Of a stretch of DNA of 64,000 nt, positions 5,461 to 20,645 are shown in pieces (position 1 is the stretch's first letter; the number at the start of each line of letters is the position of its first letter). Source of the stretch: a virus; IMG/VR virus record IMGVR_UViG_3300042561_002100, positions 62,001-126,000 of that record. One strand, 5' to 3'. The translations under genes and the position numbers were made by a program. The notes beneath the pieces were generated by a model. The model made no database searches and was not told where the DNA came from. It saw only the letters and a program-made list of their open reading frames with translations.

Positions 5461-5730
5461 ATGGACCATTTACAATACCCATGTTTAATTTTTGTTCTTT
5501 ATCCCACAGATGAAAGAACGATCAAAGTTACTGAAGAAGTCAGTAAAGATGCTTCATTATTGGGAGTAGATCTGGAAGTGGGGAAAGAATTTATTATAGA
5601 CCAAAAGTGTGACAGATTTGCTGCATCATCTTTTGATGATATTGTGAAATATTATGAACAAAATAAAGATAAAAAGGTGAGATTTAGTGATAATCTGTTA
5701 AATGAATATTTTGGTATTAAAGTGGAATGA
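5461..5730 (+). CDS. Hypothetical protein (89 aa) between dioxygenase and gp41
   Basis: Starts 2 nt after the dioxygenase stop and overlaps the helicase start by 4 nt (ATGA). It looks like a compact alpha/beta protein. I recognise no domain. Its fixed place ahead of the helicase, with coupled translation, suggests a replication accessory role by context only. Confidence 0.7.
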   Translation: MDHLQYPCLIFVLYPTDERTIKVTEEVSKDASLLGVDLEVGKEFIIDQKCDRFAASSFDDIVKYYEQNKDKKVRFSDNLLNEYFGIKVE

Positions 5731-7088
5731 ATGATAAAGTAGAACTTTTAGTATTGAAAAATTTAATATTTAATGAAGACTATACCCGAAAAGTTCTTCC
5801 TTTTCTTAAGCCTGAATACTTTCAGGATTATTCACAAAGAATATTGTTTGATGAGATCATAACATTCGTAGGTGAATACAATAAGCTACCGTCTAAGGAC
5901 GCATTAGAAATTGAGATAGCAAGACGAACTGATCTTAATGAGAGTTCGTTTAAAGAAATAAATCAGCTTATCACATCATTTGAACCAGAATTAGTAACCG
6001 AAGATTGGTTAATTTCAACAACAGAAAGATGGTGTAAAGATAGAGCTGTTTACCTAGCTCTTATGGATTCTATCCATATCGCAAATGGTGAAGATGAAAA
6101 AAGAACTCGTGATGCAATCCCGGCAATTTTACAAGAAGCCTTATCTGTTTCTTTTGATAGTAATATCGGACATGATTATTTTGAAAACAGTGATGACCGT
6201 TTTGAATATTATCACGATGTAGAGTCAAAAATTTCTTTTGAAATTGAGAGACTTAACATCATCACAAAAGGTGGAGTGAAGAGTAAAACTCTCAATATGA
6301 TTATGGGAACCACTAATGCAGGTAAATCTATTTGTCTTTGTAGTTTTGCATCTTCTTATCTTAAACAAGGTAAGAACGTACTCTACATAACTCTTGAGAT
6401 GTCAGAAGAGGAAATCGCAAAACGAATTGATGCTAATCTTCTTGATGTGAATATTGATCACATTGAAAAAGTATCAAAAAAAGTCTTTGATGATAAAATA
6501 AAAACTCTTCAAAACAGATTGAATGGTAAATTGATCATCAAAGAATATCCGACAGGTGGCGCATCGGTTAATAATTTTAGATCTCTTTTGAATGAGCTTA
6601 ATTTAAAGAAAAAGTTCGTTCCCGATATTATTATTATTGACTATCTGTCTATTTGTGCGTCTTCTCGTTATCGTAAGGGTATGGCGAACTCTTATGAGTA
6701 TGTCGGATCTATTGCAGAAGAGGTAAGAGGTTTAGCAAAAGAATACGATGTTCCAATTTGGTCGGCGATTCAATCAAATAGAGATCAACAAGCCAATAAT
6801 GATCCAACTCTAGCTGGTATTAGTGAATCTGCCAAAATTGGTCACGTATCCGATTTTCTTGTTGCTATTATCTCCAATGAGGAATTAGAGCAACTTGGAC
6901 AGTATATGTTCAAACAAATTAAAAACCGATATAATCAAAAAAGCAAACTAACAAGATTCGTTGTTGGTATTGATTATACAAAAATGAGATTGTATGATGT
7001 TGAACAAGGTGAGCTACCAGAAGATGCTCCGATTGAACAACAACCACAATCATCAACAGCAAAATTCAAAAAATTCAACTTTGATTAA
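5727..7088 (+). CDS. 41: Replicative DNA helicase, DnaB family (T4 gp41-like)
   Basis: Hexameric 5'-3' helicase of the replisome, 453 aa. The N-terminal helical domain (residues 1-160) is followed by a RecA-like ATPase core with Walker A GTTNAGKS near residue 193 and Walker B DIIIIDYLS near residue 295. The C-terminal tail is low in complexity with Gln/Ser/Pro. The ATG overlaps the stop of the upstream gene. Its likely partners here are the gp61 primase (13989) and the gp59 loader (62298). Confidence 0.95.
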   Translation: MNDKVELLVLKNLIFNEDYTRKVLPFLKPEYFQDYSQRILFDEIITFVGEYNKLPSKDALEIEIARRTDLNESSFKEINQLITSFEPELVTEDWLISTTERWCKDRAVYLALMDSIHIANGEDEKRTRDAIPAILQEALSVSFDSNIGHDYFENSDDRFEYYHDVESKISFEIERLNIITKGGVKSKTLNMIMGTTNAGKSICLCSFASSYLKQGKNVLYITLEMSEEEIAKRIDANLLDVNIDHIEKVSKKVFDDKIKTLQNRLNGKLIIKEYPTGGASVNNFRSLLNELNLKKKFVPDIIIIDYLSICASSRYRKGMANSYEYVGSIAEEVRGLAKEYDVPIWSAIQSNRDQQANNDPTLAGISESAKIGHVSDFLVAIISNEELEQLGQYMFKQIKNRYNQKSKLTRFVVGIDYTKMRLYDVEQGELPEDAPIEQQPQSSTAKFKKFNFD

Positions 7089-7095
7089 AACCATT

Positions 7096-7401
7096 ATGAC
7101 AAACGTACAATTTGACAACATTCGTGGATGGGCTGATGCTCGCAATCTTATTGAAGGTAGTAAGCCAATCAATCAAATCTCAAAACTCGTAGAAGAACTA
7201 GGTGAGCTTGCAACAGGTGTAAATAAAGGCAAGAATGATCTTATTGCTGATGGTATTGGTGATGCCGTTGTTGTTCTTACTATTCTTGCAAAACAATGTG
7301 GTATGAACATTGAAGATTGTATTGATCTTGCATGGAACGAGATTAAAGATCGCAAAGGTAGAATGGTTGATGGTATTTTTATTAAGGAGGATGATCTATG
7401 A
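7096..7401 (+). CDS. mazG: MazG-like nucleotide pyrophosphohydrolase
   Basis: 101 aa, one all-alpha MazG domain. The metal-binding pattern is visible as EELGEL near residue 31 followed by DGIGDA near residue 49. These enzymes hydrolyse (d)NTPs, and in cyanophages (p)ppGpp or dNTP pools have been proposed as substrates. I chose the ATG at 7096 because the frame upstream only re-reads the end of gp41. It ends in a coupled overlap with the next gene. Confidence 0.9.
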   Translation: MTNVQFDNIRGWADARNLIEGSKPINQISKLVEELGELATGVNKGKNDLIADGIGDAVVVLTILAKQCGMNIEDCIDLAWNEIKDRKGRMVDGIFIKEDDL

Positions 7402-8360
7402 ATGATAAACAACTAGAATATGTTGTTGAAGTCTTAGAAAGAGAGATTTCCGGTTATTCAAAAGATTATGTACCGGAGAGAATCAGTCTTCTCAGAGAGT
7501 GCGTGAGAGAGTTAAAAGGTGAAGTAACACAATTGACAGATTATCATTTACAAGAACTACAAAAATGTAAAGATGATATTGTTTATTTTGCGGAAAAATA
7601 TGTAACGATCAATAACGTTTTTTCGGGAGCGGTGAGATTTAACCCATATCCTCATCAAAAAGAATTACTTAGGGTTATACAAAATAACAATTATGTTATT
7701 GGTAAATTGATGAGGCAATCTGGGAAAACGGTGTGTGGTATAGTTGCAATTTTACATGAATTGGTGTTTGGTGAACCCAAAACAATCGGAATATTATCAT
7801 ATAAAAAAGAACAATCTAGACAAATTTTGGATACTATAAAATTATATTATAGCTGTCTTCCTGATTGGATGACCTTTAAAATTGTAAAAGATAATAAAGA
7901 ACAATTTCAATTAGAAAAGGGTTCATATGTTGATGTAATAACAGTTCGCTCTTTTTGTGGAAAAACTTATGATACTATTCTTCTTGACGAGTATGCATTT
8001 TTATTTGGGGGTAAAGTATTTCTTTTAGATGATAAACAAAAAAATTCATCAGAAGCTGTTGATCTAAAAGGACTTAAAGAATATAATGATTTTTGGAAAG
8101 TGTTTCTTCCCCTTATGACTTGCCAAAATGACCAAAGAATTTTAATTTTGAGCACCATTTCTTCTACTAATAAAAATCATTACTTTAATAAATTGTGGTT
8201 AGAAAGTTCTAGGGCGAATAACAATTTTGTTGCTTTTGAATCTAACTGGAAAGATTATCCAGAATTAGATGAAAAATGGAGTTCTTCAATTGTTAAAAAT
8301 ATCGGCGAAGGAGCTTTTTCTCTTGAATATGAATGTAAAATTGAAGAAGATAGCCCGTAA
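7398..8360 (+). CDS. Terminase-large-subunit-like ATPase without nuclease domain
   Basis: 320 aa, resembling the N-terminal ATPase domain of T4 gp17. An adenine-binding-type segment (FNPYPHQKELL near residue 80) is followed by Walker A RQSGKT near residue 104, Walker B TILLDEYAF near residue 194, and a coupling-motif-like LILSTISS near residue 250. The protein stops where the RNase H-like nuclease of gp17 (about 610 aa in total) would begin. It has an excellent Shine-Dalgarno sequence (AAGGAGG at 7384). The stop codon lies inside the terminator hairpin. It could be a specialised packaging or DNA-translocation ATPase, or a truncated paralogue; the true terminase is presumably outside this window. 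Confidence 0.8.
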   Translation: MNDKQLEYVVEVLEREISGYSKDYVPERISLLRECVRELKGEVTQLTDYHLQELQKCKDDIVYFAEKYVTINNVFSGAVRFNPYPHQKELLRVIQNNNYVIGKLMRQSGKTVCGIVAILHELVFGEPKTIGILSYKKEQSRQILDTIKLYYSCLPDWMTFKIVKDNKEQFQLEKGSYVDVITVRSFCGKTYDTILLDEYAFLFGGKVFLLDDKQKNSSEAVDLKGLKEYNDFWKVFLPLMTCQNDQRILILSTISSTNKNHYFNKLWLESSRANNNFVAFESNWKDYPELDEKWSSSIVKNIGEGAFSLEYECKIEEDSP

Positions 8361-8371
8361 TGGGCTTTTTT
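8352..8371 (+). terminator. Rho-independent terminator after the replication block
   Basis: AGCCC - 5 nt - GGGCT stem followed by a run of T. The TAA stop of the terminase-like gene lies in the loop. A late box follows within 6 nt, so this marks the border between the replication and virion blocks. Confidence 0.8.
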
Positions 8372-8376
8372 AATGT

Positions 8377-8383
8377 CTAAATA
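8377..8383 (+). promoter_or_regulatory. T4-type late box CTAAATA
   Basis: CTAAATA lies 24 nt upstream of the ATG at 8407. The same box occurs at a similar distance before most predicted virion genes of the window. T4 late promoters use TATAAATA, recognised by gp55 with gp33 and gp45. Confidence 0.7.
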
Positions 8384-8406
8384 ATTCAACTATTAAGTTT
8401 ATTCAA

Positions 8407-14990: not shown

Positions 14991-17900
14991 AAAGAGAAAT
15001 GGTGCCATTGAACCATTGATGTTAGAGAAGCTTCATCGTATGGTAGAAGAAGCATGTAGTGGTCTTTCGGGTGTATCAATCTCTCAAGTTGAGATGAATT
15101 CGCACATCCAATTCTATGATGGAATTACCACCGACGAGATTCAAAAAATCTTGATCAAATCTGCATCAGATCTTATTAGTCTTGATGCTCCGAATTATCA
15201 ATATGTTGCTGCGAGATTATTACTGTTTTCTATTCGTAAGCAGGTTTATGGTGGTACCGAAATGCCTTCGCTTATTGATCATATTCGTAATTGTGTAGAA
15301 TTGGGTGTTTATGATTCGGAAATCCTAGAGAAATATACCGAAGAAGAATTAGAAAAAGCTGATGGTTTTATTGACCATGATAGAGATTTTCTGTTTACAT
15401 ATGCCGCAATGAAGGAGGCATCAGATAAGTATTTGGTGAAAGATAGAGTTGAGGGTTTTATATATGAAACACCTCAGTTCATGTATCTTATGGTGGCTCT
15501 TGTGGCTTTTTCTAGTTATCCAAAAGAAAGTCGTCTTGGAATGGTGAAAAGATATTATGATCTAGCCAGTAAACATAAAATTAATATACCTACACCTGTA
15601 CTCGCTGGAGTTAGAACACCAGAAAAACAATATTCAAGTTGTACCCTTTTAGATTGTGGTGATTCTATTGATTCTATTATTGCAACAAAATCAGCTCTAG
15701 TAAAATATGTTGCCAATAGAGCTGGAATTGGTCTTAATGTTGGAAGAATTCGTGGTCTTGGTAAGAAAATTCGTGGTGGACGAGCTATTCATACTGGTTT
15801 GGTACCTTTTATCAAATCTTTTGAGGGTGATCTTAACTCCTGTTCTCAGGGGGGCCTGAGAAAGGGCTCAGCTACTTTATTTTTTCCTATTTGGCACCAA
15901 GAGGTTCGTGATCTAATCGTATTAAAAAATGAAAAGGGTAACACCGAAAATAGAGCCAGATCATTGGATTATGCGGTTACCACATCAAGAATTTTTTATG
16001 AAAGGTTTATCCAAAATGGTGTTATTACATTATTTTCTCCTTATGATGTTCCCGGTCTTTATGATGCTTTCGGTACACCAGAGTTTGATGATCTTTATGT
16101 AAAGTATGAAAATGATCCATCTATTCCCAAAACTACTGTTGGTGCTCAGGAATTAACACTATCTATTCTTGAGGAGCGCAGTGATACCGGAAGAATTTAT
16201 ATTTTCAATATTGATCATGCTAATTCTCATGGTCCATATAAAAAAGTCGTAAAGATGAGCAATCTTTGTGTTGCCCCAGAAACACAAATTCTTACAAGAA
16301 ACGGATATCAACCAATTTCCGACCTTGAAGAAGAGTATGTTGATATTTGGAATGGAGAAGAGTGGTCCAATGTTCAAATTAAAAAAACATCAGAAAATCA
16401 AGAATTACTTAAAGTGATAATTGATAACGAAGAAATTGAATGTACTCCATACCATAGATTTTTTGTTGTTGATAAATTAAAAACTTATTCAAAAAATAAA
16501 AAATTCATCGAAAAAGCTGCTTGTGATCTAAAACCTGGAGATAAATTGATAAAGTATGAACTACCCACAATTCAAGGGGAAAAAGAACTTGATCATGCTT
16601 ATACTTTAGGTTTTCACAGTGGAGATGGATCATATTTAAAAGGTTTGCCGATACTAGATCTTTATGGATCTAAAAAAAATATACTAGAAGAATTCAATTA
16701 TACGAAATATTATAATGATCTTAATAACAATAGAATTAGAGTATTTCTTGATATACCACCACATACTAAATTCGTTGTTCCCGATTGTGAATATACAATA
16801 GAATCTCGTTTAAAATGGTTTGCGGGTTTAGTTGATTCAGATGGTAATATTACAAAATGTCAAAATAGTGAAACTATTCAAATTAGCTCCGTTCATTTTG
16901 ACTTTTTAAAAAATATAAAATATATGCTTCAAACTCTTGGAGTAAATTCAAAAATTGTAAATTGTTATCCTGAAGGGATGAGATTGATGCCCGATGGTAA
17001 AGGAGGCAAAAAAGAATATCTATGTAAGCGGTCTTGGAGAATATTAATTTCTAATACTGGTTTGGCGAGGCTCTGTAATTTAAATTTTCATAATTATGTT
17101 AGAAAATCAAATATTTCGTTTAATATCCCCAATAGAAATGCTGGAAGGTTTAATACTGTCGAAGAAGTAATTTATACTGGCCGTTATTCCTCAACATATT
17201 GTTTTGCTGAACCTAAAAGAGGTATGGGAATGTTCAATGGTTTTCTACTCGGGAATTGTCTTGAAATTGCTCTATTAACGGAACCACTTGATCATATTGA
17301 TGATGTGAATGGTGCGATTGCTCTTTGTATTCTTTCAGCCGTTAATGTTGGAACTCTTAAAAATCTAGAAGATTTAGAAGAATATTGTGAAATGATTGTT
17401 CGTTTTCTAGATGAACTTATTGATATTCAAACTTATCCGATAAAAGCGGCAGAATTGGCTACACGAAAAAATCGCCCACTGGGAGTCGGAATTACTGGAT
17501 TAGCGCATTATTTTGCAAGACTGGGGCTGAATTACGAAGATCCAAAAACAGTAAATGTCGCTCATAAACTAGCGGAATATTTCCAATATTATCTACTAAA
17601 AGCCTCTAATCAATTGGCAAAAGAAAAAGGTGCTTGTGAAGGTTTTTATGAGACAAAGTATGCTGATGGTATCTTACCCATTGATACTTACAAGAGAGAC
17701 ATTGACAACTTCTGTGATGAACCATTATACCTTGATTGGGAAGGATTAAGACAAGATATTATGAAGTATGGTTTGAGACATACAACTCTTACTGCAGTAA
17801 TGCCCTGTGAAAGTAGCGCAAAGGTATTAAACACAACTAATGGAATTGAACCACCAAGAGATTGGTTATCAGTAAAACGTAAACTTCGTATCATTGTTCC

Positions 17901-18225
17901 ACAGTATAATAAACTAAAAAATAATTATACTTTAGCTTGGGATATGAAATCTAATGAAGGATATTTCAAGATCGTCGCGGCTTTACAAAAATTCTTTGAT
18001 CAGGCGATTAGTGCGAATTGGACCTATAACCCCGAAAACTATCCAGATAATAAAGTTCCAATGAGTGTGATTCTTAATGACTTTCTTTGTGCTTATAAAT
18101 GGGGACATAAAAGTGCATATTATATGAATACTTATAATGGCAAAAAAGATGATATGGAAATAGAAAATTTTATTAACGAAGTAATAGAAATGGAGGAAGA
18201 AGATTGTGACTCATGTAAACTCTGA
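14965..18225 (+). CDS. nrdA: Ribonucleotide reductase alpha subunit, class Ia, interrupted by an intein
   Basis: Reduces NDPs to dNDPs; the precursor is 1086 aa, and removing a 330-residue intein leaves 756 aa, almost the length of T4 NrdA. An ATP-cone-like N-terminus (KKRNGAIEP) is followed by the catalytic barrel. The first redox Cys lies in SSCTLLDCGDS near residue 225, the radical-site segment is SNL/CLEIALLTEP, its redox partner is in IALCILSAVN, and the C-terminal swinging pair is CDSC. The intein sits exactly before the Cys that corresponds to the thiyl-radical Cys439 of E. coli NrdA, so splicing is required for activity. It is followed by nrdB with a 20-nt overlap. Confidence 0.97.
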   Translation: MSNQELAVKKRNGAIEPLMLEKLHRMVEEACSGLSGVSISQVEMNSHIQFYDGITTDEIQKILIKSASDLISLDAPNYQYVAARLLLFSIRKQVYGGTEMPSLIDHIRNCVELGVYDSEILEKYTEEELEKADGFIDHDRDFLFTYAAMKEASDKYLVKDRVEGFIYETPQFMYLMVALVAFSSYPKESRLGMVKRYYDLASKHKINIPTPVLAGVRTPEKQYSSCTLLDCGDSIDSIIATKSALVKYVANRAGIGLNVGRIRGLGKKIRGGRAIHTGLVPFIKSFEGDLNSCSQGGLRKGSATLFFPIWHQEVRDLIVLKNEKGNTENRARSLDYAVTTSRIFYERFIQNGVITLFSPYDVPGLYDAFGTPEFDDLYVKYENDPSIPKTTVGAQELTLSILEERSDTGRIYIFNIDHANSHGPYKKVVKMSNLCVAPETQILTRNGYQPISDLEEEYVDIWNGEEWSNVQIKKTSENQELLKVIIDNEEIECTPYHRFFVVDKLKTYSKNKKFIEKAACDLKPGDKLIKYELPTIQGEKELDHAYTLGFHSGDGSYLKGLPILDLYGSKKNILEEFNYTKYYNDLNNNRIRVFLDIPPHTKFVVPDCEYTIESRLKWFAGLVDSDGNITKCQNSETIQISSVHFDFLKNIKYMLQTLGVNSKIVNCYPEGMRLMPDGKGGKKEYLCKRSWRILISNTGLARLCNLNFHNYVRKSNISFNIPNRNAGRFNTVEEVIYTGRYSSTYCFAEPKRGMGMFNGFLLGNCLEIALLTEPLDHIDDVNGAIALCILSAVNVGTLKNLEDLEEYCEMIVRFLDELIDIQTYPIKAAELATRKNRPLGVGITGLAHYFARLGLNYEDPKTVNVAHKLAEYFQYYLLKASNQLAKEKGACEGFYETKYADGILPIDTYKRDIDNFCDEPLYLDWEGLRQDIMKYGLRHTTLTAVMPCESSAKVLNTTNGIEPPRDWLSVKRKLRIIVPQYNKLKNNYTLAWDMKSNEGYFKIVAALQKFFDQAISANWTYNPENYPDNKVPMSVILNDFLCAYKWGHKSAYYMNTYNGKKDDMEIENFINEVIEMEEEDCDSCKL
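16267..17256 (+). mobile_element. Intein with LAGLIDADG homing endonuclease inside nrdA
   Basis: 330 codons from Cys435 to Asn764 of the precursor. The N-terminal splicing block begins CVAPETQILTRNGYQPISDL, and block B has ECTPYHRFFV. Endonuclease motifs are LGFHSGDGSY (about 16606) and FAGLVDSDGNI (about 16819). The C-terminal splice junction is FNGFLLGN followed by Cys+1. The penultimate residue is Gly rather than the usual His. Both LAGLIDADG-type acidic residues are kept, so the endonuclease may still be active. An intein is a protein-level mobile element that homes into intein-free nrdA alleles. Confidence 0.93.
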
Positions 18226-19375
18226 AATTCAAGGAATGACCGTATTCAATAGTAATCCTGTTGACACTTTAAAACAACCGATGTTTTTTGGATCACCTTT
18301 GGGTATTCAAAGATATGATGTAAATAAGTTTCCCGTATTTGGTAGATTAACACAAGATCAATGGGGTGCCTTTTGGCGCCCTGAGGCATATGAATATGCG
18401 ATTCCTAAAGATCGCGCCGATTATCAAAAACTTCGCCCGGAACAGAAGCATATTTTCACCTCTAATCTCAAGTATCAGATTATGTTAGATTCTGTTCAAG
18501 GAAGAGCACCCGGTTTAGCATTTTTACCATACTGCTCTCTACCCGAGTTAGAGGCTGCAATGATTGCGTGGGTTTTTATGGAATCAATTCATAGTTATTC
18601 GTACACATTTATTATTAAAAACGTTTATTCTAATCCGTCTGAGGTTTTTGATAATATTGTTATTGATGAAAAGATTCTTGAGCGCTCTAAATCCGTTACC
18701 GAATCCTATGATGATTTTATCCGGGATGCTCAGAATTATGGATCCTCTAATCTTTGGAAGTTTAATAATGAAGGAGTCCAGTTGGGTAAATCTGAATTAT
18801 TGGAAGTAAAAAGGAAGCTTTATCGTGCGGTTGCCAATGTAAACATTTTGGAAGGGGTTCGGTTTTATGTCTCTTTTGCTTGTTCATTTGCTTTCGGTCA
18901 AGATCATTTAATGGAAGGATCAGCAAAAATTATTTCTAAAATTGCGGCCGATGAGAGATTACATTTATTCTTAACTCAGAACATTCTAACCAAATGGAAG
19001 AGTGGTGTAGATGATCCCGATATGAAGATTATTGCTAATGAGGAAGAAGCATATGTTTATAAGATGTTTGAGCGAGCAGTTGATGAGGAAAAACGATGGG
19101 CTTCTTATCTCTTTAAAGATGGTTCAATGTTAGGATTGAATGAAAAATTACTACAAAATTATGTGGAATGGATTGCGAATAGAAGAATGAAAGCTATTAG
19201 TCTGAAACCAATTTATGATGTATCAGCTAATAATAATCCACTTCCTTGGACAGAAGATTGGTTAAATTCAAAGAATACCCAAAACCCACCACAAGAAGAG
19301 CCGAACGAATCTTATATCGTTGGTGGTGTTAAACAAGATATCTCATCAACTACATTCTCTGACTTCAAACTCTAA
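18206..19375 (+). CDS. nrdB: Ribonucleotide reductase beta subunit (radical-generating)
   Basis: 389 aa, matching T4 NrdB (388). The diiron and tyrosyl radical site is seen in the VFMESIHSYSYTF helix (Glu, His and radical Tyr) and in the later ADERLHLF segment. I take the GTG at 18206, because GGAGG lies 9 nt before it and the resulting length fits the family. An ATG at 18236 is the alternative but has no proper ribosome-binding spacing. Partner of NrdA. Confidence 0.95.
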   Translation: MTHVNSEIQGMTVFNSNPVDTLKQPMFFGSPLGIQRYDVNKFPVFGRLTQDQWGAFWRPEAYEYAIPKDRADYQKLRPEQKHIFTSNLKYQIMLDSVQGRAPGLAFLPYCSLPELEAAMIAWVFMESIHSYSYTFIIKNVYSNPSEVFDNIVIDEKILERSKSVTESYDDFIRDAQNYGSSNLWKFNNEGVQLGKSELLEVKRKLYRAVANVNILEGVRFYVSFACSFAFGQDHLMEGSAKIISKIAADERLHLFLTQNILTKWKSGVDDPDMKIIANEEEAYVYKMFERAVDEEKRWASYLFKDGSMLGLNEKLLQNYVEWIANRRMKAISLKPIYDVSANNNPLPWTEDWLNSKNTQNPPQEEPNESYIVGGVKQDISSTTFSDFKL

Positions 19376-19386
19376 TACCTCTTTTT

Positions 19387-19393
19387 CTAAATA
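19387..19393 (+). promoter_or_regulatory. T4-type late box
   Basis: CTAAATA, 26 nt upstream of the ATG at 19419, in the gap after nrdB. Confidence 0.7.
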
Positions 19394-19418
19394 ATACAGA
19401 CGTAAAAACAGTTTAACA

Positions 19419-20645
19419 ATGTCATATTATCTTTCGGAAGCCTATTCAGATCTTTATAATCCTAGAGTAGATTCAAACTTTGACGATAATCTTCGTTTTA
19501 TTGACTCTATGTTGGATGAAGATATTGAAGAAGTTGTGGAATCACTTGTATGGGAAATCTGTGATTATGGTAATAATCTAGATGAATCATTCAATATTCT
19601 TTCATTAGCTGCTTCCGATAAGATTATCACTGAGGCTTACGAAGAACTTGCTGGTGAATATCTTACTGAGTCCAGAAGTGAGGTTATGGCTCGTAGAGCG
19701 ATGGCTAAACAGGGTCTAGAACGGGAGAAAGGTAGACTTCAAAGTGATCTTCGTAAAGATGCACGTAGAGCCAGAGTTGATGGTGCGATTTCTAGAGTTA
19801 AATCTGCTATTGCTGGTGCTCGTGGTGGAATGGGTAGAGCTGCTAAAAATTTAGGTGGTGCTATTGCAAAAGCACGCACTGATGGTAAGGCTCGTTTAGG
19901 ACAACTTCTTCGTCGGGGAGTCAAGTCAACTGGTAGACTTTTAGGCTCTGCTGGTAAAGCTGTTCAATCCGCTGGTCAAAAATCTTCCGCTTCTGGTTTA
20001 GCTACTCGTAGAGCGGGTAAAGTGGAAAAAGGCGGTCAAATGTCCCTGGTGCTAGAACCCTCCACTAAAGAAAAAACTGGTGGAGCATTATCTAAAATTG
20101 GTCGCGGAATGCGCAAGGCGGGAGTAGCTGTTGGTAGATTGACTAAATCAAAATCATCTAGTATGACTAGAAGTGATTATGATAAGCGTAAATCTGAAAG
20201 AGAATCTGTCGCTAGAGAGAAAGTTGGTAAAGCTTTTGCTCCTAATGGTATGAAAAAACCACCTCTTCCTCCTCGCCCAGAAACCAAAAAACCAGTTGCA
20301 TCTCTACCTCCCGCTGGTGGAACTAAAGGACGGGAGATGTCTCCCCGTCGTAAAGAAGCATTAGAAAAAATCCAAAAAGCTGCTGTAGGTAAAACCGAAA
20401 AGGGTCGTAGATTCTCTGCTCCTGGTGGAATTGCTTCTACAAAAAGAGCCCACACTGATATTCAAGGTCAAGCTGGTAGATTCGCTCGTAAAGCACTTAA
20501 GGAATACGAAGAAATTCTAGATTCTATTCTTGATAGTCTAGTAGAAGAAAAATATGCAGTAGATCATGATAGTGCTCTTAATATTTTCTTGAATCTTTCA
20601 GAAGATATGGTATATGATCTAACTGAAGAGTTTCTTGTTGATTGA
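19419..20645 (+). CDS. Predicted virion/head-associated protein (408 aa)
   Basis: N-terminus MSYYLSEAYSDLY resembles the start of the protein at 8407 and contains an L-S-E/A site like those cut by T4 prohead protease. Acidic helical modules occupy residues 25-90 and the last 30 residues (ILDSLVEEKYAVDHDSALNIF...), flanking a long, strongly basic Lys/Arg/Ala/Gly region (residues 95-370). Acidic ends with a basic middle suggest a DNA-associated or scaffold-type internal head protein. Late-box-driven. No enzymatic motif seen. Confidence 0.7.
   Translation: MSYYLSEAYSDLYNPRVDSNFDDNLRFIDSMLDEDIEEVVESLVWEICDYGNNLDESFNILSLAASDKIITEAYEELAGEYLTESRSEVMARRAMAKQGLEREKGRLQSDLRKDARRARVDGAISRVKSAIAGARGGMGRAAKNLGGAIAKARTDGKARLGQLLRRGVKSTGRLLGSAGKAVQSAGQKSSASGLATRRAGKVEKGGQMSLVLEPSTKEKTGGALSKIGRGMRKAGVAVGRLTKSKSSSMTRSDYDKRKSERESVAREKVGKAFAPNGMKKPPLPPRPETKKPVASLPPAGGTKGREMSPRRKEALEKIQKAAVGKTEKGRRFSAPGGIASTKRAHTDIQGQAGRFARKALKEYEEILDSILDSLVEEKYAVDHDSALNIFLNLSEDMVYDLTEEFLVD

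What the first reader, a model, noticed from the sequence alone, without database searches (positions are those of the whole stretch)
7398..8360. Terminase-like packaging ATPase without a nuclease domain, in the replication operon
The protein has the gp17 ATPase motifs (RQSGKT, TILLDEYAF, LILSTISS) but ends at about 320 residues, and sits next to mazG and gp41 rather than in the packaging/head module. The strong ribosome site and a terminator fused to its stop argue against simple decay. It may be a DNA translocase with a role other than genome packaging, or half of a split terminase.
Basis: partly seen in the sequence, partly recalled or inferred. Interest (0 to 1): 0.62.

Follow-up and report, generated by a model that had tools for sequence, protein, structure and literature searches.

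The report
Nuclease-less terminase paralogue, swapped accessory gene
A T4-like virus carries, besides its complete DNA-packaging enzyme, a second shortened gene holding only the ATPase half of that enzyme; it sits in a fast-changing gene slot at the end of the early genes, so it is probably an accessory factor and not part of the packaging motor, and its exact job is untested.

Summary
In detail: window 7398-8360 encodes an intact 320-aa protein with the gp17/TerL ATPase domain (Pfam Terminase_6N above its cut-off; AlphaFold model matches T4 gp17 ATPase 2o0j) and no nuclease domain. It is not half of a split terminase and not a frameshift. The same genome has a full gp17 (997-aa ORF, nuclease present, LAGLIDADG intein at motif III) 39 kb away, and only one nuclease domain. 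Relatives show that the locus is a variable slot. One contig with 96-98% identical flanking DNA has a 43%-identical allele, with Walker A GKT changed to GKD and Walker B LDE to LNE. Others have a separate 29%-identical ATPase gene plus a 52-66-aa small gene, or only the small gene. The window protein is that small gene fused to an ATPase domain. The strong ribosome site and the terminator belong to the small gene, so they say little about the ATPase. The short ATPases form one lineage apart from all gp17s sampled, keep reading frame under purifying selection, and evolve fast. The best reading is an accessory TerL mimic in phage-host or phage-phage conflict; a DNA translocase remains possible. 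New variant of a known kind; no function shown.

The parts
7398..8360 (+). 320-aa fusion: small-protein-like N-terminus plus TerL/gp17-type ATPase domain, no nuclease domain
   Evidence: ORF; Pfam; PHROGs; structure
7398..7523 (+). N-terminal region (res 1-42) homologous to a free-standing 52-66-aa small gene of relatives
7527..8345 (+). ATPase domain (res 44-316), gp17 N-terminal domain type
7713..7730 (+). Walker A RQSGKT (res 106-111)
   Evidence: sequence; alignment
7974..7991 (+). Walker B and catalytic Glu, TILLDE (res 193-198)
   Evidence: sequence; alignment
8136..8183 (+). motif III region RILILSTISSTNKNHY; the T-P-x-G of gp17 is replaced and 3 residues are added
   Evidence: alignment
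7384..7390 (+). ribosome-binding site AAGGAGG, inside the end of mazG, shared with L015 (similar purine-rich runs in L012, L014)
8352..8366 (+). intrinsic terminator hairpin holding the stop codon; conserved in relatives without the ATPase
8376..8384 (+). TCTAAATAA, T4-type late-promoter-like box, read by eye (TATAAATAA in L014, L016, L026): border between early operon and the next unit
   Evidence: sequences; not tested statistically
7096..7401 (+). MazG-like gene immediately upstream (ATGA overlap with the fusion gene)
5727..7088 (+). gp41-like replicative helicase
   Evidence: assigned from sequence and synteny

Best explanation
Shown: an old, fast-evolving paralogue of the TerL/gp17 ATPase domain, without nuclease, occupies a variable accessory slot at the 3' end of the replication operon of one clade of T4-like phages, here fused to the slot's resident small protein. 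It is a second copy beside a complete gp17. Inferred: it is expressed early, before gp17 and the virion genes, and acts by binding as a TerL mimic in phage-host or phage-phage conflict. It could occupy a host sensor of terminase (such as Avs-type STAND NTPases), or engage the packaging components or DNA of a co-infecting phage, without packaging or cutting DNA itself. ATP binding may stabilise the mimic, but turnover appears dispensable because one allele has lost it by sequence.
For: Complete gp17 elsewhere, so packaging does not need this copy. Slot contents vary: ATPase fused (window, L015), separate (L009-L011), absent (L012, L014, L088, L089), or other genes (L016, L026, L087). Allele swap: DNA identity with L056 is 96-100% up to about 7440 and from about 8350 on, but about 50% between; dS is about 1.5 in the gene against 0.05-0.2 in the flanking genes mazG and d1-d4. 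This is typical of accessory or conflict genes. ORFs are kept: 19 amino-acid changes against 27.2 expected at random in L009 vs L011, p=0.0008, dN/dS 0.27. One lineage, 98/98 support; a sister relation to the own gp17 is rejected, p 0.025. L015 has GKD and LNE. Avs1-3 are reported to recognise TerL (PMC12724215, PMC12931631).
Against: No defence system, host or interaction partner was tested; the host is unknown. The window copy keeps all ATPase catalytic residues, which a pure decoy would not need. The variable alleles could also reflect hitchhiking of neutral cargo. Early expression is inferred from gene order and a promoter box read by eye. Only three lineages and seven contigs were seen. 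PADLOC and NCBIfam give no useful hit.
Confidence: 0.4

Rival explanations
1. It is an active ATP-driven DNA-binding or translocating enzyme used in replication, recombination or early genome handling. The TerL ATPase domain alone hydrolyses ATP and can act on DNA.
For: Walker A, Walker B, catalytic Glu and the Arg of the Walker A region are all intact in the window copy and in L009/L011. It lies in the uvsX-gp41-mazG operon. The isolated ATPase domain of D6E TerL is about 50-fold more active than the full protein (PMC5727402); the T4 gp17 ATPase domain is reported to bind DNA (Alam and Rao 2008, title cited there).
Against: The L015 allele has GKD and LNE, and conservative changes at the catalytic sites abolish T4 packaging (PMC9958956). 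The P-x-G turn after motif III is lost in all short copies. The gene is absent in close relatives with the same operon (L012, L014), so it is not essential for replication.
Confidence: 0.3
2. It is cargo of a recombination hot spot: a stray TerL fragment carried in a slot that also receives other genes, with little function, now decaying in some alleles.
For: The same slot holds a DUF7487 protein in L026 and other unrelated ORFs in L016 and L087; the catalytic motifs of L015 are degenerate.
Against: Three diverged versions all keep open frames; random placement of the same substitutions would put a stop in 83% of cases for L009 vs L011, and amino-acid changes are below chance, p=0.0008. Motifs are intact in the window copy and L009/L011.
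Confidence: 0.2
3. It is a packaging accessory: it forms mixed rings with gp17 or regulates it, for example by tuning packaging start.
For: Fold match to the T4 gp17 ATPase domain; TerL works as a pentamer ring (T4 motor, PMC8589836, abstract).
Against: It sits outside the packaging module, is absent in relatives, and is very diverged from the own gp17 (about 32-38% over the ATPase). No partner data.
Confidence: 0.08
4. It is half of a split terminase, with the nuclease encoded elsewhere, or a frameshift or intron product of gp17.
For: It ends at the ATPase-nuclease border.
Against: Only one Terminase_6C domain exists in the held genome, inside the complete gp17; relatives have no nuclease here; the following gene is unrelated.
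Confidence: 0.02

Closest known systems
T4 gp17 / TerL N-terminal ATPase domain (Pfam Terminase_6N; PDB 2o0j, 2o0h)
   Same: Fold (TM-score 0.72 by query, E 9e-20), Walker A with Arg-Gln, Walker B, catalytic Glu, adenine-motif Gln
   Different: No nuclease domain, extra N-terminal small-protein region, P-x-G turn after motif III lost, outside the packaging module, second copy beside a full gp17
phrog_5989 (347 positions, called terminase large subunit)
   Same: Best PHROG match (E 8e-40) and profile ends near the same point
   Different: The own full gp17 matches it even better (193 bits), so the match does not mark ATPase-only paralogues; its members were not inspected
Own gp17 of this phage (G000:C1:30613-33606)
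   Same: 37.5% identical over a 160-residue stretch of the ATPase domain
   Different: 997-aa ORF with intein at motif III and an intact nuclease domain; late structural neighbourhood

Membership tests
TerL/gp17 large terminase | ASCE ATPase domain with Walker A, Walker B and catalytic Glu | tested here: met
TerL/gp17 large terminase | C-terminal RNase H-like nuclease domain | tested here: not met
   ORF ends at the domain border; only one Terminase_6C in the genome, in gp17
TerL/gp17 large terminase | coupling motif III followed by P-x-G turn | tested here: not met
   core S-T kept in the window copy and L015, P-x-G lost in all short copies
TerL/gp17 large terminase | located with tail/head and small terminase genes | tested here: not met
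   lies after gp41-mazG
TerL/gp17 large terminase | powers DNA packaging at the portal | not testable with these tools
   needs biochemistry
Split terminase | separate nuclease-domain gene and no complete TerL | tested here: not met
   complete gp17 present
Free-standing homing endonuclease in an insertion slot | endonuclease domain | tested here: not met
   no such domain in Pfam or PHROGs
Counter-defence decoy of a TerL sensor | binds a TerL-sensing defence protein and blocks it | not testable with these tools
   inference only; PADLOC gives no match

The most novel reading that the evidence does not exclude
The gene is an early-made terminase decoy or TerL mimic: a nuclease-less, rapidly swapped ATPase-domain paralogue that blunts host immune receptors which detect TerL, or sabotages packaging by competing phages.
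Probability: 0.25. Interest if true: 0.78.

Novelty: new variant of a known kind. Interest (0 to 1): 0.5.

Why it matters
TerL is one of the most conserved phage proteins and a target of bacterial immune receptors. A phage lineage that keeps a complete TerL and also a separate, fast-swapping copy of its ATPase half would show that the packaging ATPase fold can be recruited for another job. If it acts as a decoy, it would give a directly testable counter-defence strategy against TerL sensors.

Tried and rejected
Split terminase: rejected by the complete gp17 and the single nuclease domain. Frameshift product: no relative has a nuclease at this locus. Recent partial duplication of the own gp17: a sister relation is rejected, p 0.025, though a wider grouping with L015 is not (p 0.31). 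Ribosome site and terminator as evidence of selection on the ATPase: rejected, they belong to the small gene. Looking for other ATPase-only copies: the 77 other IMG/VR gp17-like loci kept are full gp17s or cut by contig ends, 76 with nuclease visible and one cut before it; only the best 80 of 348 were kept. None in bacterial genome contigs at that sensitivity, none in plasmids. In GenBank phages only gp17s were listed; second places in a few records could not be listed. Small protein: no family match and no phage hit. A first tree held two wrong rows and was replaced. The gp41 row is out of frame and is not used. Literature searches found no report of such a gene.

Full report
What is there. 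Window 7398-8360 encodes a 320-aa protein. Its residues 44-316 are the ATPase domain of a gp17-type large terminase: Terminase_6N above cut-off, terminase PHROGs, T4 gp17 in the PDB at E 3.6e-25, and about 30% identity to gp17s of cyanophages and Stenotrophomonas phages. An AlphaFold model (pLDDT 77) matches the T4 gp17 ATPase domain best (2o0j, E 9e-20, TM 0.72). No nuclease domain follows.

The genome has a complete gp17. The window is G000:C1:62001-126000 of a 179,526-base virus record. A gp17 lies at G000:C1:30613-33606. Its 997-aa frame holds ATPase, LAGLIDADG and nuclease domains; a 440-aa intein is inserted at motif III (VS / CVTKD...LGHQ / TPQG). Terminase_6C occurs only once in the held genome, in that gene. 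The short gene is therefore a paralogue and not half of a split enzyme.

The locus is a variable slot. Related contigs found through gp41, MazG, the small gene and the ATPase show these states after mazG: L004 and L005, identical to the window; L015/L056, a fused 292-aa allele; L009-L011, a separate 258-aa ATPase (29% identical) followed by a 52-66-aa small gene; L012, L014, L088 and L089, the small gene only; L016, L026 and L087, other genes before the small gene (a 165-aa ORF, a DUF7487 protein, a 97-aa thioredoxin-like ORF named by eye). Residues 3-40 of the window protein are homologous to the small gene. Its ribosome site region and its terminator with P-stop are found in relatives that lack the ATPase, so the ATPase domain appears to have been joined in frame to the small gene, between its helical part and its terminator.

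Allele replacement. Against L056 the DNA is 96-100% identical up to about 7440 and again from about 8350, and about 50% in between (blastn segments). In the cassette dS is about 1.5 (near saturation) against 0.05-0.2 in mazG and d1-d4. The first 42 codons also have high dS (0.96), so already fused, long-separated alleles have been exchanged.

Selection and motifs. L009 and L011 differ by 37 bases and 19 amino acids against 27.2 expected (p=0.0008), dN/dS 0.27; their gp41 has 0.05. The frame is kept by selection but evolves fast. The window copy and L009/L011 have intact Walker A, Walker B and catalytic Glu. L015 has GKD and LNE and is probably inactive as an ATPase. All short copies have lost the P-x-G turn after motif III seen in every aligned gp17. 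In T4, changes in catalytic and coupling motifs abolish packaging (PMC9958956).

Origin. In a tree of ATPase domains the four short sequences form one side of a branch against all gp17s (98/98), with long branches as a caution; a window-own gp17 sister pair is rejected (p 0.025), while a group of window, L015 and own gp17 is not (p 0.31).

How it most likely works. Shown: structure class, absence of nuclease, second copy, slot variation, allele exchange, purifying selection. Inferred: early expression (it closes the uvsX-gp41-mazG operon, before a terminator and a late-promoter-like TCTAAATAA/TATAAATAA box read by eye) and action by binding as a TerL mimic in a conflict. Avs1-3 immune receptors recognise TerL (stated in PMC12724215; Avs1-Avs4 and packaging proteins in PMC12931631), which makes a decoy a natural hypothesis. 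The main rival is an active DNA-stimulated ATPase: the isolated ATPase domain of D6E TerL is about 50-fold more active than the whole enzyme (PMC5727402).

Limits. All related copies are metagenome contigs, the host is unknown, L015 is one contig, only the best 80 of 348 loci were kept, and nothing here measures function.

Noticed in passing
G000:C1:30613-33606 (L006:2614-5607), outside the window: The full gp17 carries a 440-aa LAGLIDADG intein exactly at motif III (C...GHQ / T).
   Followed up: partly
L006:8541-10001: A large gene downstream of gp17 (portal-like by eye) contains an intein-like start (GGCLAMNTKVSLLDGRELSISEIENEM).
   Followed up: no
L089:1506-2213: The gp41-like gene of this relative is interrupted by an intein-like segment (LGLDTLVKTKTGEEIKLRDI...DILTHNSGMN).
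   Followed up: no
L026:9902-10858: A 318-aa DUF7487 protein, homing-endonuclease-like in style, sits in the same slot before the small gene.
   Followed up: partly
window 16245-19584: The nrdA/nrdB-like region (named by eye) differs strongly from L056 (68% DNA identity from 17288) although the preceding genes are about 96-97% identical.
   Followed up: no
window 7398-7523 and L012:9669-9839: A conserved 52-66-aa gene of unknown function (YSxExxPER motif) closes the early operon in this phage group; no family match.
   Followed up: partly
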